DNA of 23,704 bases. Origin: a virus. A program made the position numbers and the translations under genes. The notes under the pieces were generated by a model, which saw only the letters and a program-made list of their open reading frames with translations, had not been told where the DNA came from and made no database searches. This document shows positions 7,891-20,783 of the stretch, piece by piece. How positions within the stretch are numbered: position 1 is the first letter of the stretch; each line of letters begins with the position of its first letter. The stretch is taken from positions 2,612 through 26,315 of IMG/VR virus record IMGVR_UViG_3300030101_002117; one strand, given 5' to 3'.

Positions 7891-8054
7891 TAATTAATAA
7901 AAAAGTTAAACGCTTCAATTTCGTCTTTCAATTCTTCTTGAAACGTTGAGTTTAATTTTTCTACAATCGCATCAAGATCTCTTACTTGAGCTTCTGCAGT
8001 TTGTACATCATACTCTCTTGATGGTCTAGTTATAACTTGTGCGATTTTTGCCAT
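7890..8054 (-). CDS. Small helical phage protein, 54 aa
   Basis: Complete 54-codon frame from ATG at 8054 to TAA at 7890: MAKIAQVITRPSREYDVQTA, then an acidic amphipathic helix (AQVRDLDAIVEKLNSTFQEE) and the ending FNFFIN. Both ends use TAATG overlaps with adjacent genes, which makes it a real gene despite its length. The heptad-like spacing of Leu/Ile/Val suggests a short coiled coil that might oligomerise or bind a neighbouring virion protein. I do not recognise a family. Confidence 0.75.
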   Translation of the reverse strand: MAKIAQVITRPSREYDVQTAEAQVRDLDAIVEKLNSTFQEELKDEIEAFNFFIN

Positions 8055-10261
8055 TATCTACGTCCATCCGGTTGTGTATCTAATCTAAATGTTCCTAATT
8101 TCCAACTTTGACTTGATGATGTATTTTCTATTTTTAATGCTATGGCTCTTGCTCTTGCTCGTGTATCTACTTTCTGTGTAGATGTTGTAAGATCAAAAGG
8201 TCCAAGTGATGAGCTTGCTGCCGAGTCATTTGGAAAATTTCTTAAATTTAATGTAACTCTAGTTGCTCCTGTTTGTGAAATGAAATCAGGTATAAATCTT
8301 CTTATCTTCATTATAAACTCACCATCCCCTCTAAATGTTGCAACGCCTGTTTGTTGTCCGGTAGATGATCTTGATTGTGTAATATCAAAATCTCCTGATA
8401 ATATGTTAGCAGTCACCGCTGTGATAGTACCATTTCTATTTTGATCTGTTCCTGTTTCGTGTTCATAGTAACTTGTTCTACCCTCTGTGTTTCCTATAAC
8501 ATCAAAAGATGTATCTGTGTCTGCATCGTATTCTAATGCATGTGGTAAACCAAATACAGCAGAGTCACGCCACATTGTTCTAGCTAAACTACCAACTGTC
8601 CATACAGGTCTTTGTTGTGATGAATCAAAGTAATTATAAGAAACCATTCTATTTACAACACTAGATCCTGTTGTTGGATAAAACCATATAACTTCACCAA
8701 ACAAATTATTTAACCCTGCTGATACCATTTGATTACCAGACTGTAGATTTATACTATCGTAAACAAAGTCCTCTACCAAACAAGGTAATGATTCTAACTT
8801 ACCTGCATATCTAAAGAAACCATTCTCTGACATCCAATATGCAGATCCATCAACTTCTACACACGCATTCTGTCCTACTAATCCACAGTTGGTTCCAACT
8901 TGTGCAAACGCAAACGTAAATGGTTGACCAACAAAACGTTGTGTGAATAGTGCTGTATCCGTCCAAACATATATTGCATCTCTACCTCTTATCGCTCCTC
9001 TGATCTGTGATCCGTCTGCCAGTCTCTGTGTACCAGCTGTATTAGTTGCTGTGGGTGTATATGTATTTATATCTTCCTGATCCGAGAATCTAATAAACAT
9101 ATCATCTTGTGATGATGGCGTTCCTATGTTTGTCTCTGTTCCAAAGAATACTAAGTGTCTATCTGGTGTAGATACTATCATATGACGTGATGCTGTCGGT
9201 GCACCAGATATAATTGTTGCTCTTGTTGATGTAGCGTTTGATAAACTAGAGTCCCATTGAAAACATGCACCATCATGAATTAAACAAATAGCTTTATCTC
9301 CAAAGTTATCTAATGACCACATTCCTGGTTCAAGAACTAAGTCTCCTGATGCAGCCTCTCCCCAAGCAACAAAATCAGATGAATTAGTTACTGTTGCACC
9401 ATCAGAGTGTGCAGCTCTTGTACTACCTCTAACTGCTCTTGTAATTCCTGTTAAATCATTTCCTGAAATACCTGTATAAGATATTTCTTCTGTTCCCACT
9501 TGAATAAAGTTTGTACCAGAATCAGGAAAGTTAACTGTGCTTGTCAATGTAATAGATGTTCCTGATCCACCGGTGCCAGCTGTGTCATTTAATAAAGCAC
9601 CGTCCAATGTTGTTGTAACAGGACCAGAAGCTTCACCACCCCAAGAACCTAATCCATAACCAAATCCTTGAGCCTGTACAGCTGGACCAACAGTATAATA
9701 TTTTTGTATTCTAATACCTCCTGATGTCGTTGCACCGGACCCACTTTCGTTTGATGGCATTGTAATAGTTATTGTTGTATTGGTAGGTGTAGTGGTCACC
9801 ATAAATTTTTTGTCATCAAAATCTGATGCACCAAAGTTTGAATTTGTAATAGTTGTAAAACTATCCATTAAAAGTATATCGCCTGGTGCTAATCCATGTG
9901 CACTAGAGTAAGTTATAGTCACAGTTGGCGATCCATTAGTCGTGGTAAATGCGCTTGTTAAAGTGGTTGTAGATTCAATAGGATGTATGTCGTAAAATAC
10001 ACCACCAGAAAAAGCATATAATATTCTATTTGTACCTATGATTGCATATTTTCTAGATAAACTGTTAATAAAGTGATGTAGACCTCGACCTGCCCCAGTC
10101 AATTCATTTTCGTTTAATGTCCCTAATTGATTCCAGCCGCCTATTTTTTCAGGTGTGCCATATCTAAATCTAACATTATCACAATCTACCCATTGTCCCT
10201 CTGCTCCTGTGGGTGTGATTTGTTTGTTGATACCTGGTTGAAAGCCTATTTTTTGTAACAT
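8054..10261 (-). CDS. Large beta-rich tail or head-completion protein, 735 aa
   Basis: 735 residues starting MLQKIGFQPGINKQITPTGA, followed by the signature WVDCDNVRFRYGTPEKIGGW (24-43). I associate this signature with a family of phage structural proteins that line up with tail hub or DNA-stabilisation proteins; the P22 gp10-type assignment is a guess. Two small inserted domains are visible. Residues 105-170 (TTTNGSPTVTITYSSAHGL) match in pattern a domain in the 164-residue protein at 22111-22605. Residues 237-297 (FIQVGTEEISYTGISGNDL and following) look like another add-on beta module. The rest is repeated beta strands with many aromatic residues, ending in LGTFRLDTQPDGRR. It is the first gene of the left minus-strand block; a perfect TATAAT lies nine bases before its ATG. 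Confidence 0.85.
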   Translation of the reverse strand: MLQKIGFQPGINKQITPTGAEGQWVDCDNVRFRYGTPEKIGGWNQLGTLNENELTGAGRGLHHFINSLSRKYAIIGTNRILYAFSGGVFYDIHPIESTTTLTSAFTTTNGSPTVTITYSSAHGLAPGDILLMDSFTTITNSNFGASDFDDKKFMVTTTPTNTTITITMPSNESGSGATTSGGIRIQKYYTVGPAVQAQGFGYGLGSWGGEASGPVTTTLDGALLNDTAGTGGSGTSITLTSTVNFPDSGTNFIQVGTEEISYTGISGNDLTGITRAVRGSTRAAHSDGATVTNSSDFVAWGEAASGDLVLEPGMWSLDNFGDKAICLIHDGACFQWDSSLSNATSTRATIISGAPTASRHMIVSTPDRHLVFFGTETNIGTPSSQDDMFIRFSDQEDINTYTPTATNTAGTQRLADGSQIRGAIRGRDAIYVWTDTALFTQRFVGQPFTFAFAQVGTNCGLVGQNACVEVDGSAYWMSENGFFRYAGKLESLPCLVEDFVYDSINLQSGNQMVSAGLNNLFGEVIWFYPTTGSSVVNRMVSYNYFDSSQQRPVWTVGSLARTMWRDSAVFGLPHALEYDADTDTSFDVIGNTEGRTSYYEHETGTDQNRNGTITAVTANILSGDFDITQSRSSTGQQTGVATFRGDGEFIMKIRRFIPDFISQTGATRVTLNLRNFPNDSAASSSLGPFDLTTSTQKVDTRARARAIALKIENTSSSQSWKLGTFRLDTQPDGRR

Positions 10262-10342: not shown

Positions 10343-11056
10343 ATGAAAACAACAATATATTGGTCACCTGGAGATGTAGACTTACATCATGATTGGAGTA
10401 TTTTATACAAAGACCCTTCTATATTGGGCAGTGATTTAAGAAAAAGAATGTCCAAAAATATAGAGAAAACATCTAATCTTTTTTACTGTCCTGCTGTCAA
10501 AGATCTAACTTCTAGAATAGCTGTATTAAAAGCTCCTATGAGTTGTCATTATAAAATGAGGGAGAACGAATTTATACCTGTATCTAAAAATTTTTTAAAC
10601 ATTACTTTTCCACATAAACCAAATTTTGAAAACAATATGATGTTTCAATTATCTACTTCTTACATATTCTTTTGTGAGGAAGATGTGAAAATGACTTTAA
10701 CTTCTCCGTACTTTTCTGATAGCCCACATCTAAAATATGGCTCAATAATACCTGGCTCTTTTAACATATCCACCTGGTTTAGAAACATCAATATGGAGTT
10801 TAATCTATGGGGAGATATAGAAGAGTTTAAATTTAAAAAAAATGAGGACATGGCTTATGTTCATTTTGATAGTGAACATGAGATAGAATTAAAAAGATTT
10901 GATTTTAATGAAAGATTATTAAGAATAATAAGAACTTGTTCTTCTGCAGGCACTTGGGAAAAATTTGTACCTTTAATGGAAAGATATAAAAGATTTAAAG
11001 AGGCTAGATTTAAAAAAATTATATTAAAAGAAATAAAACAAAACCTTCTAGATTGA
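10343..11056 (+). CDS. Unknown protein leading the carbamoyltransferase/oxygenase cassette, 237 aa
   Basis: 237 residues from ATG 10343 (MKTTIYWSPGDVDLHHDWS); an in-frame ATG at 10325 would add six residues. I prefer 10343 because the best promoter-like elements end just before it and because MKTTIYWSPG reads like a natural N-terminus. It is rich in Lys, Phe, Asn and aromatic residues, with LFYCPAVKDLTSRIAVL in the first third and a highly charged C-terminal helix ending KKIILKEIKQNLLD. There is no signal peptide, membrane segment or recognisable catalytic motif. It is the first gene of the plus-strand operon and its stop overlaps the carbamoyltransferase start (TGATG), so it probably works with that enzyme or the two oxygenases that follow. 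The function is unknown; I will not assign a family. Confidence 0.8.
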   Translation: MKTTIYWSPGDVDLHHDWSILYKDPSILGSDLRKRMSKNIEKTSNLFYCPAVKDLTSRIAVLKAPMSCHYKMRENEFIPVSKNFLNITFPHKPNFENNMMFQLSTSYIFFCEEDVKMTLTSPYFSDSPHLKYGSIIPGSFNISTWFRNINMEFNLWGDIEEFKFKKNEDMAYVHFDSEHEIELKRFDFNERLLRIIRTCSSAGTWEKFVPLMERYKRFKEARFKKIILKEIKQNLLD

Positions 11057-12531
11057 TGAATTTTATATCTATTAGACTATGCGAGCATGACTCAAACATA
11101 TCTTTTTTTGATGGTGAAGAGATTCACTATTTAAAATCAGAAAGGATTTTTGATACTAAACATCATGCCTATAATAATCTTATAGAATGGAGACAAACAG
11201 TATTTGATCATTGGAATATAGATATAAACGATGTTAAAGAAATGTCCGTGGTCCTTGACCCGTGGATATATAACTTTCCTCTAGATAAAAAAATATTTTT
11301 TCCAAGCACTAAGTTTTATTGTCATGAACTAGGTAATGTAACAAGAGTAAATCATCATTGGGCTCACGCTTTAAGTAATAACTTGGTACATGGAGATATG
11401 AAAAATCATATGATTATAGATGGGTTTGGAGATAAAGATGTGGCTACCACTGTATTTAAAAACAACAAGTTAGTTCAGACAACATCTTTTAGTAAACATG
11501 GTTCAATTGGAACTTACTACGGTGACGTAGCCTTAGATCTAGGAATAAAAGTTAGCCATGAATGTGACCTTGCAGGTAAATTAATGGGATTACAATCATA
11601 TGGTAGTTTGGATAAAGGTTTTTACAATACAATAAAAAACTTTGACATCACCAAAGTAAAACAAATATATGATTTTAATTTATATATTGATTACAAAAAA
11701 GATCCTTTGATTGCTTTTCATAACAAACTTAATTGGGCACATACTATACACAAAAGACTAGGAGAAGTGATACTAGAATACTTTAAAAAACATTTCAAAA
11801 AGAAAGATACAATAGGATACGCTGGCGGTGTGGCTCACAATATAATATGGAATACACTACTGAAAGAAGAATATCCTAACTTAAATATACCACCTCATTG
11901 TGATGATGAAGGTTTAAGTTTAGGTGGCGTTAAGTTTTTATTAGATAAGTACAAAATAAAAAAATATAAATTAAATAATTTTCCGTTCTGTCAAACTGAT
12001 GAATCTACAGAAGAACCTTCTATAGATACTGTAAAAAAGATTGCGAAGTATTTAGCTAAAGGAGAGATTGTTGCATGGTATCAAGGTCATGGAGAAATTG
12101 GTGCAAGAGCCTTGGGTCATCGTTCTATACTTATGAACCCTTACGTAAAAGATGCTAAAGAAAAATTAAACAAGATTAAAAACAGAGAAGTGTACAGACC
12201 TTTTGGTGCTTCTGTATTAGAAGAAGATTACAGTAAATATACAAAAGCAAGATATCTAAACCCTTATATGCTTTATGTTAATTATTTAATAAAAGATTTA
12301 GATAGTGTTCAGCACGTAGATAAAACCTGCAGACTTCAATCTGTGTCAAAAGACAATAAATATTTCTACGCTTTATTACAAGAATACAAAAAGATAACTG
12401 GAGAATCTCTTATTATTAATACAAGTTTAAATATATCGGGTAAACCCATAATGAATAATATTAAATCTTTATTAGAATTTAAAAACAAGAATAATATAAA
12501 AGCTGTTTATGGAAATACAATTATCAGATAA
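11056..12531 (+). CDS. NodU/CmcH/TobZ-family O-carbamoyltransferase
   Basis: 491 residues, near the lower end of the family's range. Enzymes of this family make carbamoyl-adenylate from carbamoyl phosphate and ATP in a Kae1-like N-terminal domain and pass the carbamoyl group to a hydroxyl of a sugar or small molecule. Visible landmarks: NHHWAHALSN (99-108; H100 and H104 match the family's metal-binding His pair), IDGFGD (121-126), GYAGGVAHNIIWN (254-266), DDEGLSLGG (283-291), and the C-terminal signature GEIGARALGHRS (346-357) with NREVYRPFGASVLEED (376-391) and INTSLNISGKP (454-464). All expected blocks are present, so the enzyme looks intact. A TTG three bases earlier is open in frame, but ATG 11056 overlapping the upstream TGA (TGATG) is more credible. 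Acceptor unknown. Lys/Asn/Ile-rich and very AT-rich. Confidence 0.9.
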   Translation: MNFISIRLCEHDSNISFFDGEEIHYLKSERIFDTKHHAYNNLIEWRQTVFDHWNIDINDVKEMSVVLDPWIYNFPLDKKIFFPSTKFYCHELGNVTRVNHHWAHALSNNLVHGDMKNHMIIDGFGDKDVATTVFKNNKLVQTTSFSKHGSIGTYYGDVALDLGIKVSHECDLAGKLMGLQSYGSLDKGFYNTIKNFDITKVKQIYDFNLYIDYKKDPLIAFHNKLNWAHTIHKRLGEVILEYFKKHFKKKDTIGYAGGVAHNIIWNTLLKEEYPNLNIPPHCDDEGLSLGGVKFLLDKYKIKKYKLNNFPFCQTDESTEEPSIDTVKKIAKYLAKGEIVAWYQGHGEIGARALGHRSILMNPYVKDAKEKLNKIKNREVYRPFGASVLEEDYSKYTKARYLNPYMLYVNYLIKDLDSVQHVDKTCRLQSVSKDNKYFYALLQEYKKITGESLIINTSLNISGKPIMNNIKSLLEFKNKNNIKAVYGNTIIR

Positions 12532-13012
12532 ATTTTATCTATATAAAAGATTAATATCTGTGCCTAAAAATATTTTTATAGAAGATATAGATAACGAGAT
12601 AAATTCAGGAAACCTTTGTGAGGGAGTCCCTAAATATCAGACATACAACAATCTATATGACAAGATGAAAGAAAAAACTCATTGGAAAGTTTTATACAAA
12701 GAAGTATTAAATAAAGTTATGAATATAGATCAAAATCTAAAACTACATAGTTCTTGGGCTAATGTATCAAAAAAAGATTCTTCTTTTAACAATCACACTC
12801 ACAACACTAATCTTACAGCTATATATTATTTAAAAAATAAATATTTAGAATTTGGTACTTCTATAAAAGATTCTGTAATAATTCCTGGAGAAGAAAACTC
12901 TTTATTAATATTTAATGCCAAAGTTATGCACTCAATTGTAAACATTCATCCAGACCTGTATGATAAGACGGGTCCAAGATATTCCATAGTATTTGATTTT
13001 GTATGTCAGTAA
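12509..13012 (+). CDS. Putative 2OG-Fe(II) oxygenase, HxH type, 167 aa
   Basis: 167 residues, the length of a minimal double-stranded beta-helix oxygenase. The metal site reads NNHTHNTNLTAIYYLKN: H96 and H98 in an HxH rather than HxD arrangement, then distal H141 (FNAKVMHSIVN) and R157 (GPRYSIVFDF), which would anchor 2-oxoglutarate. HxH plus the following strand (TAIYYL) resembles the Pfam 2OG-FeII_Oxy_5 group (PF13759), common in marine phages; this is from memory of the family, not a search. Such enzymes hydroxylate unactivated carbons using Fe(II), 2OG and oxygen. The gene overlaps the carbamoyltransferase by 23 bases and the next oxygenase by 10, so the three genes form one transcript. 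The ribosome site is weak; coupling is likely. Substrate unknown. Confidence 0.75.
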   Translation: MEIQLSDKFYLYKRLISVPKNIFIEDIDNEINSGNLCEGVPKYQTYNNLYDKMKEKTHWKVLYKEVLNKVMNIDQNLKLHSSWANVSKKDSSFNNHTHNTNLTAIYYLKNKYLEFGTSIKDSVIIPGEENSLLIFNAKVMHSIVNIHPDLYDKTGPRYSIVFDFVCQ

Positions 13013-13578
13013 TATTAAAAAAATTTAAATTAAACTCTTACGCTTTTGTCTTTCAAATGAAAGAACATAAAAAAATTAAAGATAAATTATTAGATCTTAT
13101 TAATATCACTGACCAACATACAATTAAACCAGATGAAACTTGTAATGATTTTATATCAAAGACTGATTGGAAATTTTCTAAAATACCAGAAAGATTATAT
13201 GCAATGGAGTTTTCTAAGATACTTGAACCCTATATTACTAAAATGCTTTTAGAACTGTCTATGGATGAAGCTACAATACATAACATGTGGTTTCAAAGTT
13301 ATCACAAAAAAGACACTCACAACTGGCATATACATGAAGGGACACATTGGACAAATATTTATTTTTTACAACTACCTGATAAAAATTTTAGAACTGAACT
13401 ATACGATAGTTTTGATAAAAAAATTATTAATAATATAGAAATAAAAGAAGGCACACTGTTAAGCTTTCCAGCAAATATTTTACACAGGTCACCTAAAAAT
13501 ACCTCTAATAAAGTAAAGACAATAATATCTTTTAATACTACTTTTTCTAATACCAAACAAAATTTAATACAATCCTAA
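13003..13578 (+). CDS. Putative 2OG-Fe(II) oxygenase, HxH type, 191 aa
   Basis: 191 residues. The candidate iron site is HNWHIHEGTHWTNIYFLQLP with H109 and H111 (E112 adjacent). Distal H161 lies in SFPANILHRSPKN, a typical closing strand of the family, and K170/K172 could take the place of the usual 2OG-binding Arg. Like its upstream neighbour it looks like the PF13759-type group, but the two share little sequence outside the motif, so they are not a recent duplication. It is the last gene of the plus-strand cassette, and its 3' end overlaps the 3' end of the minus-strand oxygenase gene by 32 bases. Function inferred from motif only; substrate unknown. Confidence 0.7.
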   Translation: MSVILKKFKLNSYAFVFQMKEHKKIKDKLLDLINITDQHTIKPDETCNDFISKTDWKFSKIPERLYAMEFSKILEPYITKMLLELSMDEATIHNMWFQSYHKKDTHNWHIHEGTHWTNIYFLQLPDKNFRTELYDSFDKKIINNIEIKEGTLLSFPANILHRSPKNTSNKVKTIISFNTTFSNTKQNLIQS

Positions 13579-14032
13579 AATTTACGTCGGTATGTGTCTG
13601 TGTTCCGTGTTCCATGTTTGCAGGAAACATTACGAATCTATTGGCTACACTTTCAACAAACTTACCATCTTTAAAATAAGTTCCGCCATTATTTGTATTT
13701 ACATAAAAAATACCTGTCTTACAATTATCCAAACCTTTTTCAAAATCAGTATGTAGACTAGTTTTAAAAGACTCATGGTTTTTGTAATCAAAATTACCTT
13801 TTATTCTTCTTAAAGCCATCACATCACATTTCTCCAACACCGGTGTAATAAAATTAAACCAGTTACTATGAATCATACTTTCTTCAAAAAAAGAATGTGT
13901 GAGAGATGGAAGTTTATCGTCAGGGTTTACTTTACCTTCTTGATAATACCAAGGAAACCTTAATGAAGTTATTTCTTTATATAAAATATTAAAGTGTTCT
14001 TGTGATAAAAAATTATCTAGAACTTTAATCAT
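13547..14032 (-). CDS. Putative 2OG-Fe(II) oxygenase, HxD type, 161 aa
   Basis: 161 residues, starting MIKVLDNFLSQEHFNILYKE. The full facial triad is visible: H94 and D96 (TSLHTDFEKG), H142 (FPANMEHGTQTHTD) and R153 (NFRIVLNFVWY) as the 2OG anchor. The strand GTYFKDGKFVESVANRFVMF between them matches the prolyl-4-hydroxylase-like fold. All residues needed for catalysis appear present. It is the final gene of the minus-strand arm and overlaps the small coiled-coil gene by eight bases. Its tail overlaps the plus-strand oxygenase, so the two transcripts have complementary 3' ends. Substrate unknown; a role with the halogenase-like enzyme two genes upstream is inferred from position. Confidence 0.8.
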   Translation of the reverse strand: MIKVLDNFLSQEHFNILYKEITSLRFPWYYQEGKVNPDDKLPSLTHSFFEESMIHSNWFNFITPVLEKCDVMALRRIKGNFDYKNHESFKTSLHTDFEKGLDNCKTGIFYVNTNNGGTYFKDGKFVESVANRFVMFPANMEHGTQTHTDVNFRIVLNFVWY

Positions 14033-14288
14033 TCTTATTTAATAGTATATCTATGTAATTTCTATATTGAATTATTCTCTTAGAGTATTGTTCTATTATC
14101 TCAACAAGACTGTTTGATTGTAATTTAAAAGTTTCAACCATTTGTTTCAAATCGTGATTAAGAGCTTTTTCAGATTTGTTAATTAACTCTGCTTTAGTTA
14201 AGGAGGTTCTCAAATCCTCATTTTCTCTTAATACTTTTTCATATTTAAATTTAAGTCTACCTAATTGTTCTCTATCTGAAATATTCAT
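14025..14288 (-). CDS. Small coiled-coil protein, 87 aa
   Basis: 87 residues, strongly charged and almost entirely predicted helix by eye (EQLGRLKFKYEKVLRENEDL, then KALNHDLKQMVETFKLQSN). There is no Cys, Trp, Pro or Gly beyond one glycine near the start. Heptad spacing of Leu/Ile/Val suggests a parallel coiled coil. An AAAGG-type ribosome site lies before ATG 14288, and the gene overlaps the halogenase-like gene by 17 bases. No catalytic motif. It could be an oligomerisation partner or adaptor for the neighbouring enzymes, or an unrelated small phage protein. Family not recognised. Confidence 0.7.
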   Translation of the reverse strand: MNISDREQLGRLKFKYEKVLRENEDLRTSLTKAELINKSEKALNHDLKQMVETFKLQSNSLVEIIEQYSKRIIQYRNYIDILLNKND

Positions 14289-15447
14289 AATTTAAGCCTT
14301 TCTGTATTATTCGATAACTTCTTGGAATAAAAGGAAATGATTCTGTTTTATTTCCAAGATACATGTCAACTGTCGTAGGATCATTTATATATTCAACAGT
14401 CTTATCCCAAAACTCATTGTGTTTCAAGTGAGCACTTGTTTTTTCGATGGTGTCTTTCCAAAACGGAGTATTAAATAATGAACCTCCATGATAAACAAAA
14501 CATATGAAATTTTCGTATTGTTTAGCCATAGCATCAAACTCGTTGTTGACATCATCTTCTTTCATTCTTCCTAATATATAATCAAAAAACATTCTATTTA
14601 TATTATCATAAAAGACAGTCGATAGAGCTTCCATAGGTTCATAAAAAATAGCTTTGTTACCATTTTTAATTACTCTATTATTCAAAACATTATTTGCTCT
14701 GTATGGTTTAAATTTAAATTCTTTTAAGTTTAATTTTTTAGTATTGAATATTTTTGATATGTCTTCTTCAGCATCTTTTGTTTTTGTAATATTGTTATTA
14801 AACAAATATCCCCAACCTTGTCTTGTCTTCAAAGGTATTCCAAACATCCAACCATTTTTAGTTGCTTGATGATATGTAAAATTCCAATTACCAGGTTCTT
14901 TTATAGAGTGCACCAAAGCATGATTTAAAGGTAAGAAATCAGAAGTAGTATAATCAGAATAATCTTTTGGGTATCCTGAACAATCTATGACATAGTCATA
15001 TTTCAATTTCTTTTTATTTACAGTTAAAATAACTTCTCTATTGTTTTGTTTAATAGATGAAACATTTCCTTTTATTTCATTAAAATAATCTTTTTTATAG
15101 ATCTTTAATCTTTTAAATATAACATCTTTTAATTTAAAATTATTAAAATGAAATGCATACGCAGGAGGAACTATTGGACTTATGAAATCTTTTTTTCTCC
15201 AGTTTTTATATTTGACTCCGTATTTGATTGTAATATCTAATTCATCTGAATCCTCAAATCCATTAAAATTAGCAGCTCTAAATAAAACATCAGGCACTTG
15301 AATATTAGTGCTTTCTCCTATACCTAAAATATCTTTTTCAGGATTGTGTATGCAATCTACTTGTAAGTTAAGACCTGCTGAATAATGTAATAAATGACAA
15401 ACAGACATTACTCCAACGGTTCCTGTTCCTATAACTGCTATCTTCAT
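14272..15447 (-). CDS. Flavin-dependent tryptophan-halogenase-like protein
   Basis: 391 residues, shorter than bacterial tryptophan halogenases (PrnA is about 540). The FAD-binding Rossmann motif GTGTVG (8-13) opens the protein, followed by the family signature GIGESTN (42-48). K75 in DITIKYGVKYKNW aligns by context with the catalytic lysine (PrnA K79). GWMFGIPL (199-206) corresponds to the halogenase GWxWxIP motif with Phe for the second Trp. EPMEALS (270-276) corresponds to the EPLEAT segment that carries the catalytic glutamate. VIDCSGY (153-159) is the second FAD-contact motif. These enzymes use FADH2, oxygen and halide to halogenate an aromatic or similar substrate. Marine phage homologues are known, including one shown to iodinate substrates (VirX1, cyanophage Syn10). 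The gene overlaps its upstream oxygenase by four bases (ATGA). A flavin monooxygenase that does not halogenate remains possible. Confidence 0.85.
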   Translation of the reverse strand: MKIAVIGTGTVGVMSVCHLLHYSAGLNLQVDCIHNPEKDILGIGESTNIQVPDVLFRAANFNGFEDSDELDITIKYGVKYKNWRKKDFISPIVPPAYAFHFNNFKLKDVIFKRLKIYKKDYFNEIKGNVSSIKQNNREVILTVNKKKLKYDYVIDCSGYPKDYSDYTTSDFLPLNHALVHSIKEPGNWNFTYHQATKNGWMFGIPLKTRQGWGYLFNNNITKTKDAEEDISKIFNTKKLNLKEFKFKPYRANNVLNNRVIKNGNKAIFYEPMEALSTVFYDNINRMFFDYILGRMKEDDVNNEFDAMAKQYENFICFVYHGGSLFNTPFWKDTIEKTSAHLKHNEFWDKTVEYINDPTTVDMYLGNKTESFPFIPRSYRIIQKGLNYEYFR

Positions 15448-16118
15448 CTTTTAACCTTTATATCTGCAGGTATACCCAGATGAGGTCTACCATCGTATAT
15501 GTTTAATTGAGAACCTTTTGTTTCCATATTGTTGTAGTGAAAAAATACTTGAGCACAGTTTTCTCCTTCAAAAGAATCTCTATAGTGCTCTAAATCAATT
15601 CCTCTATAAACTAACATATCACCAGGTTTTAAATCAACTTTTTTACCTTTTTGTTTGGAGGGTTCATAATATACTTTGTCTCCTTGTTTTTTATCTTTAC
15701 CTTCTTTTGGATTTGGGTTGATGTATATAGGCCATGAATCCCCACCTATAAAAAGTGTTGTGGATATTTCACAACTAAATCTATCTTTATGTCTTTTAAG
15801 AATATCTCCATTCTTGTAGATCCTAGAGTAAGAATAGTTTGGAGTTAGTTTTAATTTAGTAGCTTTTTCTGTAGCTATAAGTAATCTACTTAATAAAGTT
15901 TCCATTAAAACATCGCCATATATAGAAAAAGTATTAGGCACTTGATCATCTTTCCAAGTTCCATATATTCTTTCAAAGGGTGTAAAATATTTTACTTCTA
16001 ATAAAGTTTTAGCAGCTTTTCTTTTTAATATTAAATAATCATAACAAAGATCAGCTATTTCTTTTGAAATAATATTTTTAACTACACAATACTTGTCTTT
16101 TTTAAAACTTATCGCCAT
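15444..16118 (-). CDS. Putative 2OG-Fe(II) oxygenase with no obvious 2OG-anchoring Arg, 224 aa
   Basis: 224 residues from ATG 16118 (MAISFKKDKYCVVKNIISKE). A frame extending to ATG 16136 exists, but 16118 has AGGAGA five bases upstream and a shorter overlap with the preceding gene (10 bases). Candidate metal ligands are H110 and D112 (LKRHKDRFSCEIS) and distal H178 (GIDLEHYRDSF). The residue about ten after the distal His is usually Arg or Lys, but here the stretch reads GENCAQVFFHYN. So 2OG binding may be unusual, or Q190 or another residue may replace it. WPIYINPN (129-136) and KPGDMLVYRG (164-173) match the core strands of the fold. The family is widespread in marine phages from memory. 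The stop overlaps the halogenase-like start (ATGA), a strong sign of joint expression. Confidence 0.75.
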   Translation of the reverse strand: MAISFKKDKYCVVKNIISKEIADLCYDYLILKRKAAKTLLEVKYFTPFERIYGTWKDDQVPNTFSIYGDVLMETLLSRLLIATEKATKLKLTPNYSYSRIYKNGDILKRHKDRFSCEISTTLFIGGDSWPIYINPNPKEGKDKKQGDKVYYEPSKQKGKKVDLKPGDMLVYRGIDLEHYRDSFEGENCAQVFFHYNNMETKGSQLNIYDGRPHLGIPADIKVKR

Positions 16119-16750
16119 GGTTCTCCTATACTCCATATAACTAAACTATATCTTGTTCCTTTGGTAACCGGTGTAACTCTGTGCCATAGGTAAGATGGAA
16201 ATACAACTATAGATCCCTGCGGTTTAATTTCTTCAATAATTTTCCCTGATCTTTTATTTCCTTGTTTGGGATTACTTAAATCAAATTCTAAATCTCCACC
16301 TTTATAATCTTTAGGGTCAGACAAAGAAACTGTTACTGAAAGTTTTCGCATTTTTCCATCATAATTTTTATTTGCACTTTTATATGGTTGATAACTTCCA
16401 TCAGTATGCCACTCATAAAAATACCCTTTGTTGTAGGTTGTAAATTGAGCATCCTCTGAAAAACTCCATTCAAAATTCCATCCAGCATTTTTGTTTGCTT
16501 CTTGTATAAATGGACAAATTGCATTGTAGATAAATAAGTCATTTAAAAAAACTACATCTGATTTTCTAATAGCTTTTAAAGTTGTTTTATCTTTTTTAGA
16601 TAACTCATGTTTATTTTTTACAGGAGGTATATCTCCAACAGTACCAATACTTTTAATTTTTTGGTTACCGTATAAAATTAATTCTTCACAAAATTTTTTT
16701 GATAAGGCACTTTTAAAATACCAATAATCATATTTTGAACAAAAACTCAT
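16109..16750 (-). CDS. 2OG-Fe(II) oxygenase (PKHD/P4H-like), 213 aa
   Basis: 213 residues. The complete active-site set is visible: H115 and D117 (YEWHTDGSYQP), distal H190 (PSYLWHRVTPV) and R200 (KGTRYSLVIW) for the 2OG carboxylate. The spacing H-x9-R and the GGDLEFDLSN strand (151-160) fit prolyl-4-hydroxylase-like and PiuC/PKHD-type hydroxylases, whose usual length is near 220 residues, so it looks full length. The ribosome site is weak. It is the first gene of the minus-strand arm of the accessory island, 44 bases after the structural gene at 16795, and a weak promoter is possible in that gap. It overlaps the next oxygenase gene by ten bases. Substrate unknown. Confidence 0.85.
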   Translation of the reverse strand: MSFCSKYDYWYFKSALSKKFCEELILYGNQKIKSIGTVGDIPPVKNKHELSKKDKTTLKAIRKSDVVFLNDLFIYNAICPFIQEANKNAGWNFEWSFSEDAQFTTYNKGYFYEWHTDGSYQPYKSANKNYDGKMRKLSVTVSLSDPKDYKGGDLEFDLSNPKQGNKRSGKIIEEIKPQGSIVVFPSYLWHRVTPVTKGTRYSLVIWSIGEPWR

Positions 16751-16779: not shown

Positions 16780-16808
16780 ATAGTATAAATAAATTTATAG
16801 CAATACAA
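16780..16808 (-). promoter_or_regulatory. Weak possible promoter before the minus-strand accessory genes
   Basis: Minus strand TTGTAT (16803-16808), 17 bases, TACTAT (16780-16785). The 44-base gap here is unusual among tightly overlapping genes and is very AT-rich, so both hexamers could be chance. It would let the oxygenase/halogenase arm be expressed apart from the tail genes. Confidence 0.2.
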
Positions 16809-17232
16809 ATTCAGATGTTTCTGGATTCCAACGATACACATTAGAGTTATCAGCATGATTAGCTAACCATCTTTGGTTGTCTTCGTCCCAACTTATATTT
16901 CTATAAACTTCTGTCTCTGCAGGTCTAGCAACTGGAGGTTGCCATTCAAATTCTGAATCTAATGTCCAACTAGCAAAAGGTTGATCGTGTATAAAGACAT
17001 CATTTACTGGGTCATAGTACATACCAATTCCAGCAAATCTTTTTCTAAAATTATCATTGTAAGAAGTTTGAACCCACTTAACTCCATTGAAAGAAAGTTT
17101 AACAGTTTTTTGTCCAAAGTGATTTGCGGCTGTCTCTTCTTGATCACCACCATTATCACTTATATCTTTGTCGCATGCTACAACAACTCTTAAAACTTTA
17201 TTATCAGCGTCTAATTCTGCAAAGTGTGCCAT
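16795..17232 (-). CDS. Conserved marine phage protein, probable tail-associated, 145 aa
   Basis: 145 residues starting MAHFAELDADNKVLRVVVAC, with VKWVQTSYNDNFRKRFAGIG (51-70) and a Trp-rich C-terminal half (FASWTLDSEFEWQPP, ending VYRWNPETSEFVLL). From memory this family is frequent in cyanophages and other marine phages, often near fibre and baseplate genes, and lacks a firm function. The fold appears to be small, beta-rich and aromatic. It starts by TAATG overlap with the glycine-rich gene and ends 44 bases before the accessory island, so it closes the tail block. A structural or chaperone-like role with the adjacent glycine-rich adhesin is inferred. Confidence 0.8.
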   Translation of the reverse strand: MAHFAELDADNKVLRVVVACDKDISDNGGDQEETAANHFGQKTVKLSFNGVKWVQTSYNDNFRKRFAGIGMYYDPVNDVFIHDQPFASWTLDSEFEWQPPVARPAETEVYRNISWDEDNQRWLANHADNSNVYRWNPETSEFVLL

Positions 17233-18176
17233 TATATTTTCAAAGTCCCCGATACTGTAAATAGTGCTACTTGATCTCCTCCTACACTAGAGATTGTATT
17301 TGTTGGAGGTGTTATTTGAAATAAAGCATCAGAAGGTGCTCTTAAAATAATAATACCAGAACCACCATTTCCACCTGGTTGATAAGGAGGTCCTCCGGCT
17401 CCGCCGCCGCCTCCGGTATTTGTTCCGCCCGCTCCTCCAGCAGGTCTTGTTCCAGATGCTCCACTATTTCTAGCAGATCCCCCACCTGAACCTAGAGTTC
17501 CACCTGGGCCGCCGGCTCCGCCACCGCCTCCAGATCCTCCATTTCCATGTGAGCTTGGTCCTGGGGGTCCTCCCCCGTTTCCACCGCCACCACCTGAATA
17601 AGTGTAGCCGTTACCATCAATATTGTTTGAACTTCCGCTTCCACCTGGGCCGCCAATTCCTGATCCGCCCCATGGAGATCCCGAACCTCCGGCTCCACCG
17701 CCACCAGCTCCATTCCATGGTCTATGGTTAGCATTACCACCTGGATTTCCCTGTGAAGGTGATACAGGAGGAAAATTACCTGATCCTCCAGTTACTGCTC
17801 CATCTGAATTTCCGTGTCCTGCTCCTCCACCTGAGCCTCCTGGTATACCTGAAGGGTTTGGTGCTCCTGAACCAACACCTGAAGGTGCACCTGCACCGCC
17901 ACCACCTGAAGAAAATTCAGCTGGATGACCGTCTAAAATATTGCTATCTCCACCTCTGTTTGAACTACCACCTGCTCCGACTGTAATTGTATAAGTACCA
18001 GCATCAACTGTGATTCCAGTTCCTCCTGGAAAAGATGTACGAAAACCTCCGCCTCCGCCACCACCTGCGTCGTGACTTCCACCTTTTCCTCCGCCAGCTA
18101 TATTTAAGTAAGCGAATGTAACAGGTGGGTTAGGTGCTTTACCACCGCCTAATCCTAGTAGTCTGTATCCGAACAT
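17232..18176 (-). CDS. Polyglycine-rich adhesin-like tail protein, 314 aa
   Basis: 314 residues. After a short ordered N-terminus (MFGYRLLGLGGGKAPNPPVT) come about 250 residues dominated by glycine blocks separated by Ser/Asn/Pro (for example AGGGGGGGFRTSFPGG, GGGGAGGSGSPWGGSG, YSGGGGGNGGGPPGPSSHG). One conventional motif, AGTYTITVGAGGSS, precedes the main glycine run. The end (GIIILRAPSDALFQITPPTN and VALFTVSGTLKI) is beta strand. Long spaced glycine runs of this sort form polyglycine type II helix lattices in the tip adhesin gp38 of T4-like Salmonella phage S16, where loops bind the receptor. I infer a similar tip adhesin here. The coding strand is a local G-rich island in an AT-rich genome. 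A strong AAGGAG site supports the start. Confidence 0.85.
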   Translation of the reverse strand: MFGYRLLGLGGGKAPNPPVTFAYLNIAGGGKGGSHDAGGGGGGGFRTSFPGGTGITVDAGTYTITVGAGGSSNRGGDSNILDGHPAEFSSGGGGAGAPSGVGSGAPNPSGIPGGSGGGAGHGNSDGAVTGGSGNFPPVSPSQGNPGGNANHRPWNGAGGGGAGGSGSPWGGSGIGGPGGSGSSNNIDGNGYTYSGGGGGNGGGPPGPSSHGNGGSGGGGGAGGPGGTLGSGGGSARNSGASGTRPAGGAGGTNTGGGGGAGGPPYQPGGNGGSGIIILRAPSDALFQITPPTNTISSVGGDQVALFTVSGTLKI

Positions 18177-18188
18177 ATTCTATTCTCC

Positions 18189-19580
18189 TTATGCGTCGTT
18201 TGCAGCGTCAGTAGTAAAGAATAACTTGATACCTAGAAGTTTTGCATCAGCAGTTAAACTATCTTCTGACACATCTCTTGATATTTGAAAGAACACCTGC
18301 TCATCTGTGCTAGGTGAACCTGCAATAGTTACTGCACCACTTTCTGCTGTAACATCTAAATCGTTCGCTGTCCCACTGTGAGCTTTTGCTGTTGGTGCAA
18401 CTTGTGTACCAAAAGCTGTATTACAAGAATCATTATCTGCAATAGCAACACCAGATAAACCCCAAGAAACAGTACCTGTGTTTGTTGAGTTTGCTGTGAA
18501 AAATGCTTGAAAAGTTACTGTGCCTTCATTCCATGATTTTGGAAATGCAACAGCAAATTGTGCAAACTCATCTGAGTCTTTATCAAAATCTAATGTTTTA
18601 AGTTCTGGTCCGTTTCCTAATTCTGTTTGTGCTATGTCAGCACAACCATTTGTAGTGTTAGGATACATAGCAACTGATGGAACCCAAATAGTTTCTTTAC
18701 CTGCAATTTTAACTGCACCAGTAGCATCTCCTGCGTCTACTGCTTTAACAACTCCAGTTCCGTTAGGAGCTAAAGTTATATCTCCATTAGCTGCATCTGT
18801 AATAGTTATTGTTCCTGAGTTTGTTCCAGAATTTGTATCTAATATTAAATCATGTGCTCCGCTAGATGTAATAGTAGCATTCCCTGATCCTGAACCAACA
18901 ACAGTTTCTCCTGATCCTTTTGGTTTAATAGCTATGTCAACATTAGTTTCTCCTGTTGCTGAAAGAGCAGGTGCTTCACCTGTTGCAGCATTTGCTATCG
19001 TAAATTCATTAACTGCTGAACTTGTTGCAGTAAGATTAATTAATTCGTTGCCATTTGTGTCTGAAATTTTTGTCCCTATTACTGGACTAGTTAAAGTTTT
19101 ATTTGTTAAAGTCTGTGTTCCTGTTAAAGTTACATCACCATCGTTAAAACCTAAAGTATAAATATCTGGATTAGTTCCATCGTTACCTGTTGCAAAAACT
19201 AGCTGGTCACCTTTATCAGTTGCTGAAAAAGTAAAGCTATCTCCAGATCCAGAAGCATATTTAAATTGTACTGTATAAGAACCTGATGTTGAATTTCTTA
19301 AAAAATAAAAGGTTTGTGCATCTAAAGGAATTGTTACAATTTGATTTCCTGTAATCGTACCTGTAAATTCAATCATTCTGTGAGACATGACCGCACCAGT
19401 TGATCCGTCTGAAACAGATAAAGCTGTAGTTTGTGCACCACCTGCAATTGATTGTGCAGTGAAACCACCTGAAATTTGTTCAATAATTTGTAAATTAGTA
19501 TTTGTTTTTGTACCCCATGTACCGGCGTTTTCACCAGTTGCCTGAAGCTCTACTCCTAAAGGTGTGTATGTTGATGCCAT
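18189..19580 (-). CDS. Tail fibre protein, 463 aa
   Basis: 463 residues starting MASTYTPLGVELQATGENAG, followed by TWGTKTNTNLQIIEQ, an N-terminal pattern common to marine phage fibres that attach to the tail. TLTGTQTLTNKTLTSPVIGT (151-170) is a well-known fibre shaft motif, followed by Ser/Thr/Gly-rich beta repeats (200-280). The C-terminal part from about residue 293 (ETIWVPSVAMYPN, FPKSWNEGTVTFQAFFTAN, LLGIKLFFTTDAANDA) is a compact beta domain that I recall from many marine phage fibres and that probably contacts the receptor. AGGAGA lies a suitable distance before ATG. It lies between the cupredoxin/repeat protein and the glycine-rich protein, which together look like the host-contact apparatus. 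Confidence 0.85.
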   Translation of the reverse strand: MASTYTPLGVELQATGENAGTWGTKTNTNLQIIEQISGGFTAQSIAGGAQTTALSVSDGSTGAVMSHRMIEFTGTITGNQIVTIPLDAQTFYFLRNSTSGSYTVQFKYASGSGDSFTFSATDKGDQLVFATGNDGTNPDIYTLGFNDGDVTLTGTQTLTNKTLTSPVIGTKISDTNGNELINLTATSSAVNEFTIANAATGEAPALSATGETNVDIAIKPKGSGETVVGSGSGNATITSSGAHDLILDTNSGTNSGTITITDAANGDITLAPNGTGVVKAVDAGDATGAVKIAGKETIWVPSVAMYPNTTNGCADIAQTELGNGPELKTLDFDKDSDEFAQFAVAFPKSWNEGTVTFQAFFTANSTNTGTVSWGLSGVAIADNDSCNTAFGTQVAPTAKAHSGTANDLDVTAESGAVTIAGSPSTDEQVFFQISRDVSEDSLTADAKLLGIKLFFTTDAANDA

Positions 19581-19595
19581 AATTTTTATCTCCTA

Positions 19596-20783
19596 TTACG
19601 CTGCTACGTCTGTATACGATGTATTAGAACCTGTGTCAATAGCTTGATATGCTTGAATTCCAAACTTATCAGAGGTGCCTAATTCAGCAACAGAAGCAGT
19701 AGCTGATACACCTGTTAATCCCATCACATCTGCAGGTGTTAATGCTCCAACACTAGCAGTTGCTGAGACTCCTGTCAATCCCATAATATCTGCAGGAGCA
19801 ATTGAACCCACAGAAGAAGTTACAGAAACTCCAGTTAATTGAATTGTTGGATTAGATGTAACATTAACTTCACCAATACTTGTTGTTGCAGAAACTCCAG
19901 TTACACCAATAACGTCCGCAGGTGTTAACGCTCCAACACTACCGGTCGCTGAAACTCCTGTTAATCCCATAACATCAGCAGGAGCGATTGATCCAACAGA
20001 AGTTGTTGCTGAAACTCCTGTTATCGCCTGTGTTATGTCTCCCACTATTGTTGGAGATCCAACACTTGTTGTCGAAGAAACTCCGGTCAATCCGATTATA
20101 TCTCCAACTGTTAATGATCCAACAGAAGTTGTTGCTGAAACTCCTGTTAATAATATATCACCTTGAATGCCCCAAGCATCATCATTCCAAGCTGCTCTAC
20201 CCCATCCAGTATTTATTTCTGCAGTTACGCTAACAGATCCAATAGATGAAGTTAAACCAAGACCTGTTGGAGTAACTGTTTCGTCACCCATGTCTCCCCA
20301 AGAACCTGAAGAGTCCCATGCCTTAGCACCCCAACCTGTCGTAAATTCATCAGTTATACCCCATCGACCAGCACTCCAATTTCCTGCACCCCACACGTCT
20401 TCATCAACGGTATTTGCAGTCCATCCCATAGCTGAATGGTTTGTACAATAATAATATAAAGTTGGTGCATCGGCAGCAACTGTAATTTGTGTGTATGCTC
20501 CCGAACTACCTGGTGTTCCATTAGTTGTTACACCGGTTGTATATTCGGTGCCTCCCCCGTGTGTTCCGTTTGGAGTGGTAGAAAACCTTAATGGGTGTCC
20601 AGAATTATAATAATCTGATTGATCAAAACGAAAAGTTCCACCTTCAGGTAAACTTAAAGTTACATCTGCTGTGGCTGTCGAACCATCGATAGCATATTTA
20701 TTTGTTGAACCAACATTGTGATATGGGTGATTTGACGGATTACCACTGACAACTGTGACCGTGTATGTTCTATCAACGGACAT
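19596..20783 (-). CDS. Virion protein with cupredoxin-like domain and LTGVSATTSVG repeats, 395 aa
   Basis: 395 residues in three zones. Residues 1-125 form a cupredoxin-like domain: GHPLRFS (H63) and YYYCTNHSAMG (C113, H116, M119). Those are the four ligands of a type 1 copper centre, with the C-x2-H-x2-M spacing of amicyanin. Residues 130-210 are a Trp/Gly-rich stretch (GAGNWSAGRWG, TGWGAKAWDSSGSWGD). Residues 213-366 carry eight copies of a TGVSATTSVG unit, with one degenerate copy near 173. From memory, cupredoxin-like domains of this sort recur in marine phage fibre or tail proteins. Whether copper is bound is untested; the fold may be kept purely for structure. AGGGGG precedes ATG 20783. 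Its place between a small structural gene and the main fibre suggests a fibre or fibre-attachment protein. Confidence 0.85.
   Translation of the reverse strand: MSVDRTYTVTVVSGNPSNHPYHNVGSTNKYAIDGSTATADVTLSLPEGGTFRFDQSDYYNSGHPLRFSTTPNGTHGGGTEYTTGVTTNGTPGSSGAYTQITVAADAPTLYYYCTNHSAMGWTANTVDEDVWGAGNWSAGRWGITDEFTTGWGAKAWDSSGSWGDMGDETVTPTGLGLTSSIGSVSVTAEINTGWGRAAWNDDAWGIQGDILLTGVSATTSVGSLTVGDIIGLTGVSSTTSVGSPTIVGDITQAITGVSATTSVGSIAPADVMGLTGVSATGSVGALTPADVIGVTGVSATTSIGEVNVTSNPTIQLTGVSVTSSVGSIAPADIMGLTGVSATASVGALTPADVMGLTGVSATASVAELGTSDKFGIQAYQAIDTGSNTSYTDVAA
19686..20147 (-). repeat. In-frame degenerate tandem repeats encoding LTGVSATTSVG units
   Basis: Eight in-frame units encode TGV[S][ASV]T[TSAG]S[VI][GA], spaced by 7-14 variable residues such as SLTVGDIIGL or ALTPADVMGL. 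A more degenerate ninth copy (TGLGLTSSIG) lies before, near 20267. Neighbouring pairs (SIAPAD and ALTPAD linkers) are arranged as if two-unit blocks had been copied. The DNA units differ at third positions, so the array is old enough to have diverged or is held by protein selection. Confidence 0.85.

What the first reader, a model, noticed from the sequence alone, without database searches (positions are those of the whole stretch)
10343..16750. Accessory island: five 2OG-Fe(II) oxygenases, a halogenase-like enzyme and a carbamoyltransferase beside the fibre genes
Seven of the nine genes in this 6.4-kb stretch encode enzymes with visible catalytic motifs that install hydroxyl, halogen or carbamoyl groups, and they are embedded in an otherwise purely structural region. 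Single genes of these types are known in marine phages, but five distinct oxygenases with one halogenase and one carbamoyltransferase in overlapping operons look like a pathway. An inferred idea: hydroxylases make acceptor hydroxyls that the carbamoyltransferase caps, while the halogenase edits an aromatic or other group on a virion protein, a host glycan or a small molecule.
Basis: partly seen in the sequence, partly recalled or inferred. Interest (0 to 1): 0.85.

Follow-up and report, generated by a model that had tools for sequence, protein, structure and literature searches.

The report
Tailoring-enzyme island beside phage tail adhesin
A marine virus that probably infects SAR11 bacteria carries, next to its cell-attachment genes, a swappable set of enzymes (five predicted hydroxylases, a carbamoyl-adding enzyme and a halogen-adding enzyme) that most likely decorate one of its own surface proteins; the enzyme kinds are known, but their modular, attachment-linked arrangement has not been described as such.

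Summary
At 10343-16750 there are nine tightly overlapping ORFs. Seven encode enzymes: five 2OG-Fe(II) oxygenases, a flavin-dependent halogenase with all checked catalytic motifs, and a NodU/CmcH/TobZ-type carbamoyltransferase. All have dN/dS well below 1. The contig is an HTVC023P-type pelagiphage. The location is a conserved hotspot: in 113 of 116 distinct related contigs, chosen without regard to island content, one or more oxygenase genes lie between the tail adhesin and the tail stabilisation-like gene. Halogenase (7/116) and carbamoyltransferase (10/116) are sporadic add-ons, never together in the sample (0.6 expected), so the fixed seven-enzyme pathway is not supported. In sister phages a second, 32%-identical halogenase sits exactly in the carbamoyltransferase slot. 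Sulfotransferases and methyltransferases occur in the slot elsewhere. Within islands, carbamoyltransferase lies next to PF13759 oxygenases more often than shuffling gives. One oxygenase family, published as 'ferrochelatase', co-varies with a glycine-rich adhesin and is itself a 2OG-fold protein. Best reading: interchangeable enzymes that modify the phage's own adhesin, inferred from linkage only. The substrate is untested; host glycan, DNA, small molecule, or a mere gene-acquisition hotspot remain possible.

The parts
8054..10261 (-). Tail stabilisation-like virion protein (phrog_3287), island boundary and anchor gene for comparative sampling
10343..11056 (+). g1, unknown protein (phrog_17480); 73-100% identical in the few close relatives; fold prediction failed
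11056..12531 (+). NodU/CmcH/TobZ-type O-carbamoyltransferase; occupies the slot that holds a second halogenase in sister phages
12509..13012 (+). g3, 2OG-Fe(II) oxygenase, PF13759-like (H96xH98...H141...R157)
13003..13578 (+). g4, 2OG-Fe(II) oxygenase PF13759 / phrog_81 (H109xH111...H161)
13547..14032 (-). g5, 2OG-Fe(II) oxygenase, phrog_274 (library name 'DNA endonuclease V'); H94xD96...H142...R153
14025..14288 (-). g6, small probable coiled-coil protein, unknown
14272..15447 (-). Compact (391 aa) flavin-dependent halogenase, PF04820; GxGxxG, K75, GWxxxxP, EP/E273 conserved; AF2 pLDDT 95, canonical fold
15444..16136 (-). g8, 2OG-fold oxygenase family phrog_2954 (library and literature name 'ferrochelatase'); H116xD118...H184
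16109..16750 (-). g9, PKHD-type 2OG-Fe(II) hydroxylase PF13640; near-universal gene of the slot (112 of 116 contigs)
16795..17232 (-). g10, unknown (phrog_7759), usually next to the glycine-rich protein
17232..18176 (-). Glycine-rich tail protein (weak Gly_rich_2), probable adhesin; its presence co-varies with g8
18189..19580 (-). Conserved tail protein used here as the far boundary marker of the slot

Best explanation
The stretch is a modular tailoring-enzyme island at a fixed hotspot between the adhesin genes and the tail stabilisation-like gene of HTVC023P-type phages. Shown: the enzyme families, the hotspot, purifying selection, gene-for-gene exchange, and co-variation of g8 with the glycine-rich adhesin type. 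Inferred: the enzymes act on the phage's own tail adhesin (most likely the glycine-rich protein 17232-18176 and/or its neighbours). On this reading the core oxygenases (g9, g8) hydroxylate side chains; PF13759 oxygenases (g3/g4) make a hydroxyl that the carbamoyltransferase caps; the halogenase adds a halogen to an aromatic side chain. Optional enzymes (HAL, CT, and in relatives sulfotransferase or methyltransferase) are swapped, changing the surface chemistry of the receptor-binding tip and hence host recognition.
For: Position: 113 of 116 unbiased loci carry 2OG genes exactly between adhesin and anchor gene. Adhesin coupling: loci with glycine-rich adhesins have g8 in 53/57 and the oxygenases on the tail strand (247:2); collar-type loci have g8 in 15/50 and the opposite strand (131:2); beta-propeller-like loci have g9 without g8 (5/5); the three SPRY/DUF7483 loci have no oxygenase. 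On independent pairs of the anchor tree g8 follows the glycine-rich type 7.5:0.1 (median p 0.016), whereas the equally close g4 does not (2.8:2.4). Exchange: CT versus HAL2 between g1 and g3 with breakpoints at the start codons and identical 1-base and 23-base overlaps. Capping enzymes as a class: carbamoyl-, sulfo- and methyltransferases in the same slot. CT next to PF13759. Similar HAL/CT/2OG islands in other contigs lie beside tail genes (T4 gp15-like, tail assembly chaperone, tail-fibre-like). Fe(II) oxygenase genes are listed among metaviromic-island genes together with host-recognition genes (PMC3909814).
Against: No substrate was tested; co-variation could reflect physical linkage and co-recombination, although g4 does not follow. 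The g8 test is one of nine families examined and would not survive Bonferroni correction. Fifteen collar-type loci also have g8. In collar-type phages, and for half of the window's island, the genes run against the tail operon, so co-transcription with the adhesin is not required. NodU-type carbamoyltransferases and sulfotransferases usually act on sugars or small molecules. Halogenase and carbamoyltransferase also occur in cyanophages away from tail genes. Single-HMM typing of glycine-rich proteins may mix unrelated low-complexity proteins.
Confidence: 0.42

Rival explanations
1. Acquisition hotspot only: the boundary between the adhesin module and the next structural module recombines often and collects unrelated accessory genes that share no substrate.
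For: HAL and CT are sporadic and independent (0/116 together, 0.6 expected), gained or lost many times, and their dS to relatives is often lower than that of neighbours (CT 0.51 against 0.76 for g1 and 0.80 for the anchor gene in L011), as expected for separately moving genes.
Against: The contents identified are nearly all group-adding enzymes or oxygenases rather than a random sample of phage morons; g9 is near-universal; CT pairs with PF13759 oxygenases; all genes are under purifying selection.
Confidence: 0.23
2. The enzymes modify host surface glycans or outer-membrane proteins during infection (for example to block superinfection or keep progeny from rebinding debris).
For: NodU/TobZ carbamoyltransferases and sulfotransferases classically decorate sugars (family knowledge); HTVC023P and HTVC027P carry glycosyltransferase genes a few genes downstream.
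Against: Sugars already have hydroxyls, so several 2OG oxygenases would be superfluous; strict linkage to adhesin type is not predicted; no glycosyltransferase inside the window's island.
Confidence: 0.15
3. Auxiliary metabolism: 2OG drawdown, iron/haem or small-molecule synthesis, as proposed for marine phages.
For: Published readings: 2OG/nitrogen signalling in cyanophages (PMC3037559); oxygenase plus 'ferrochelatase' partner genes in HTVC023P-type phages (PMC9599517); seasonal enrichment of both (PMC11561400).
Against: The 'ferrochelatase' partner has no ferrochelatase match in 60 members and is 2OG-fold, removing the iron/haem argument; fixed position at the adhesin and adhesin-type coupling are not predicted.
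Confidence: 0.12
4. DNA or nucleotide hypermodification: oxygenase creates hydroxymethyl bases that the carbamoyltransferase caps.
For: A phage-associated 5hmC carbamoyltransferase of this superfamily is proven (PMC8670742); weak best PDB match of g8 is to TET-like dioxygenases (E 0.013); HTVC023P-type phages are reported to encode DNA hypermodification genes (PMC9599517).
Against: No thymidylate synthase-type hydroxymethylase in 14 CT-bearing contigs or in the window's contig (the records may be fragments); no island gene matches Tet_JBP in Pfam; a genome search for Tet_JBP was also empty but its control failed, so it is uninformative; the halogenase and adhesin coupling would be unexplained.
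Confidence: 0.08

Closest known systems
2OG-Fe(II) oxygenase + 'ferrochelatase' gene groups of HTVC023P-type pelagiphages (Wittmers et al. 2022, PMC9599517)
   Same: Same phage group, same co-located oxygenase families (this window adds a relative)
   Different: That paper's main text does not mention halogenase or carbamoyl genes and reads g8-type genes as ferrochelatase; here g8 is a 2OG-fold protein, and the set is tied to the adhesin slot and type
VirX1 and other marine viral flavin-dependent halogenases (Gkotsi et al. 2019; PDB 6qgm)
   Same: Same superfamily and flavin/lysine/halide machinery; both from marine phages
   Different: 391 aa against 531 aa; only a local match (E 2e-9); nearest annotated phage homologues are S-MS29/S-SSM5 halogenases at 42%; sits in an oxygenase island rather than alone
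NodU/CmcH/TobZ O-carbamoyltransferases, and phage 'Nol-like' carbamoyltransferases (phrog_1601)
   Same: Both domains present, conserved H100/H101/H104/D122 and C-terminal motif; best phage relatives 39-40% (P-RSM6, ACG-2014d)
   Different: Acceptor unknown; adjacent to PF13759 oxygenases in a tail-adhesin island
5-hydroxymethylcytosine carbamoyltransferase (MetaGPA, PMC8670742)
   Same: Same Pfam domains; phage-associated
   Different: That enzyme co-occurs with thymidylate synthase-type genes; not seen here or in 14 CT-bearing contigs
Metaviromic islands at host-recognition genes of marine phages (PMC3909814)
   Same: Variable islands holding tail fibre, lectin-like and Fe(II) oxygenase genes
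   Different: Here shown as a modular slot with interchangeable group-adding enzymes and adhesin-type coupling

Membership tests
Flavin-dependent (tryptophan-type) halogenase | GxGxxG FAD-binding motif | tested here: met
   G7, G9, G12 invariant in 98 relatives
Flavin-dependent (tryptophan-type) halogenase | Catalytic lysine (PrnA K79 equivalent) | tested here: met
   K75 invariant and aligned to the K of LooH/BorH
Flavin-dependent (tryptophan-type) halogenase | WxWxIP motif and EP/E346-type glutamate | tested here: met
   GW200-MFGIP205 (second W replaced by F), E270-P271 invariant, E273 90%
Flavin-dependent (tryptophan-type) halogenase | Overall fold | tested here: met
   AF2 pLDDT 95; Foldseek PDB E 3e-26, TM 0.80 to PyrH
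Tryptophan-specific halogenase | Trp-pocket segments (PrnA region about 89-157) | tested here: not met
   Most of that region is absent: query 85-96 spans target about 90-157 in the phmmer alignments
NodU/CmcH/TobZ O-carbamoyltransferase | Both Carbam_trans_N and Carbam_trans_C domains with conserved motifs | tested here: met
NodU/CmcH/TobZ O-carbamoyltransferase | Transfers carbamoyl to a hydroxyl acceptor | not testable with these tools
   Needs biochemistry
2OG-Fe(II) oxygenase (g5, g9) | HxD...H iron triad plus distal R | tested here: met
2OG-Fe(II) oxygenase (g3, g4) | HxD...H iron triad plus distal R | tested here: inconclusive
   HxH...H conserved instead of HxD...H (family-wide in the PF13759-like set); g3 keeps R157, g4 has K at the expected R; Pfam and profile matches support the family
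2OG-Fe(II) oxygenase (g8) | HxD...H triad and homology to known members | tested here: met
   H116, D118, H184 invariant in 127 relatives; hhalign 84% to g9 against 0.1-0.3% controls; 1 of 60 members hits PF13532
Ferrochelatase (name given to g8 family) | Match to the ferrochelatase Pfam family | tested here: not met
   No such match among 60 diverse members
5hmC carbamoyltransferase DNA-modification system | Partner thymidylate synthase-type hydroxymethylase or TET oxygenase | tested here: inconclusive
   None found in 14 contigs or own contig, but records may be incomplete; the Tet_JBP control failed

The most novel reading that the evidence does not exclude
Phages chemically diversify their receptor-binding adhesin after translation with an interchangeable cassette of hydroxylating, carbamoylating, halogenating, sulfating and methylating enzymes, matched to the adhesin type and exchanged gene by gene as a way of changing host recognition without changing the adhesin sequence.
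Probability: 0.3. Interest if true: 0.85.

Novelty: new variant of a known kind. Interest (0 to 1): 0.55.

Why it matters
2OG oxygenases are among the commonest unexplained accessory genes of abundant ocean phages and have been read as host-metabolism genes (nitrogen sensing, DNA repair, iron/haem). Placing them in an adhesin-linked slot with capping enzymes, removing the ferrochelatase argument, and showing gene-for-gene swaps turns a vague 'auxiliary metabolic gene' into a testable claim about virion chemistry and host recognition. Mass spectrometry of one cultured phage (HTVC023P or HTVC027P) would go far to decide it.

Tried and rejected
Near-identical DNA in annotated phages: none. Structure of g1: only four distinct sequences, pLDDT 34, unusable. 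g1 as a member of the recurrent phrog_7084 family: profile match 5%, not supported. g8 against g5 by hhalign: 7-14%, uninformative, though g8 against g9 and g4 is positive. HAL-g8 adjacency as a functional pair: p 0.0006 at first, but p 0.05-0.30 after collapsing similar halogenases, so rejected as evidence. HAL tied to glycine-rich adhesin: Fisher p 0.006, but no support on independent pairs. Adhesin type against strand on independent pairs: 3:0, too few. TET/JBP search: control failed, uninformative. Promoters/terminators: fewer promoter-like sites than in shuffles, no usable signal. Rfam and tRNA: nothing. Literature search for a published halogenase-bearing pelagiphage tail island: none found in the held library, which lacks many subscription papers.
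Full report
What the window is. The window is C1:2612-26315 of a 26,315-base virus record. Its stabilisation-like gene (8054-10261, -) has its best relatives in phage 023Pt_psg01, HTVC027P and HTVC023P (47-48% over most of the length), so this is an HTVC023P-type phage; the two cultured ones infect SAR11. No annotated phage is close in DNA.

The observation. Nine ORFs fill 10343-16750, four on + and five on -, converging with a 32-base overlap at 13547-13578. Pfam and PHROGs give a carbamoyltransferase, a tryptophan-type halogenase and oxygenases. The two oxygenases that Pfam does not recognise directly (g5, g8) are supported by relatives, profile comparison and invariant HxD...H residues. g3 and g4 belong to the PF13759-like branch, which keeps HxH...H rather than HxD...H in this set. 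The halogenase keeps its flavin motif, catalytic lysine, GWxxxxP and EP/E motifs in 98 relatives; its predicted structure (pLDDT 95) matches flavin halogenases at TM 0.80 while being about 140 residues shorter than VirX1 or PrnA. Most of the segment that corresponds to PrnA 89-157 is missing, so free tryptophan is an unlikely substrate (inference). All genes show purifying selection against relatives with 63-99% protein identity (dN/dS 0.01-0.26).

The slot. To avoid selecting for the finding, I sampled contigs by the anchor gene alone, once with the window's protein and once with that of HTVC027P, removed near-duplicates at 97% DNA identity and typed the genes between tail adhesin and anchor with HMMs built here. 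Of 116 distinct loci 113 hold at least one 2OG gene there; g9 is in 112 and g8 in 68. The cultured HTVC023P and HTVC027P and the assembled psg01 have 3-5 such genes at the same place. The halogenase is in 7 loci and the carbamoyltransferase in 10, never both (0.6 expected, so absence of the pair is not itself significant). On the anchor tree they change state at least 6 and 8 times. The complete set of the window is found only in its close lineage (L002, L003, L005, L011). HAL, CT and oxygenases together also occur in four other contigs, but these were found by HAL- or CT-based searches and so cannot be used for rates.

Exchange of parts. In sister phages (L008-L010 and others, first halogenase 84% identical) the gene between g1 and g3 is not the carbamoyltransferase but a second halogenase, 31-32% identical to the first. 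DNA similarity runs through g1 to the stop/start junction, is lost over the carbamoyltransferase/halogenase, and resumes at the g3 start codon; both versions overlap g1 by 1 base and g3 by 23 bases. Other contigs carry sulfotransferases, methyltransferases and further oxygenase-like proteins in the slot.

Adhesin coupling. Loci fall into adhesin types: glycine-rich (57), collar domain (50), beta-propeller-like (5, my reading of the repeats) and SPRY/DUF7483 (3); one is untyped. g8 is in 53/57, 15/50, 0/5 and 0/3; oxygenases are absent altogether in the SPRY type. On phylogenetically independent pairs g8 follows the glycine-rich type 7.5 to 0.1 (median p 0.016), while g4, in the same island, goes 2.8 to 2.4. 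Nine families were examined, so this is suggestive, not proof. Strand differs between types (247:2 against 131:2), but on independent pairs only 3:0.

Pairing inside islands. Carbamoyltransferase is beside a PF13759 oxygenase in 22 of 36 islands against 11.3 expected (p 0.0004); at 70-80% protein-identity collapse p is 0.01, at 60% it is 0.13. The halogenase-g8 adjacency does not survive such collapse.

A name to correct. The g8 family (phrog_2954) is called ferrochelatase in PHROGs and has been treated as a ferrochelatase partner of 2OG oxygenases in two papers (PMC9599517, PMC11561400). None of 60 diverse members matches the ferrochelatase Pfam family, the HxD...H residues are invariant, and profile comparison links it to the 2OG family. 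It is better read as another 2OG-type oxygenase; a structure or assay would settle it.

Mechanism. I favour modification of the phage's own adhesin: position, adhesin-type coupling of g8, loss of the set with the SPRY adhesin, exchange of capping enzymes, and similar islands beside tail genes in other contigs all fit. Everything about the substrate is inferred. Host glycan, metabolic and DNA rivals, and a plain acquisition hotspot, are given with their tests; the last is the strongest because HAL and CT move independently.

Novelty. Halogenase, carbamoyltransferase and clustered oxygenases in marine phages are all published (PMC3037559; PMC9599517). The modular slot with gene-for-gene replacement, the g8 re-reading and the adhesin coupling were not found in the held literature, which is incomplete.

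Limits. Mechanical ORFs, HMMs built from the fetched loci, contigs that are mostly fragments, the 80 best hits per scan, and glycine-rich typing partly by composition.

Noticed in passing
window 15444-16136 and phrog_2954 relatives: Gene family named ferrochelatase in PHROGs and literature has no ferrochelatase match and looks like a 2OG oxygenase; a gene with a 'ferrochelatase domain' is also listed in cyanophages (PMC3037559) and may be the same case.
   Followed up: partly
window 13547-14032 (phrog_274): PHROGs names this 2OG-type family 'DNA endonuclease V'; the same name stands on the corresponding gene of phage 023Pt_psg01.
   Followed up: partly
L055:1-13300, L058:645-12165, L062:1-12485: Contigs with four or five halogenases, several 2OG genes and (L058, L062) a carbamoyltransferase in one island beside tail genes; L055 also lies next to GroEL/GroES-like genes.
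   Followed up: partly
L092:1318-2028, L062:1780-2547, L055:1827-2615 and about 40 loci: phrog_7084 family of unknown function recurs next to g9-g8 or next to halogenases.
   Followed up: partly
L089:5685-6500, L090:9396-9995, L116:8889-9431; L089:7556-8140, L090:6421-7005: Sulfotransferase-like and methyltransferase-like genes in the same adhesin-side slot.
   Followed up: partly
L179, L201, L219, L224, L236 downstream of the anchor gene: A second slot just past the stabilisation gene carries PF13759 oxygenase plus carbamoyltransferase pairs.
   Followed up: no
window 19596-20783: Predicted tail-fibre-like protein with many repeats of the type LTGVSATTSVGSL.
   Followed up: no
L336, inside the ORF 857-1507 (own contig, outside the window): Short run of unknown bases inside an M15-peptidase-like gene, so the contig has a scaffold gap or masked stretch.
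   Followed up: no
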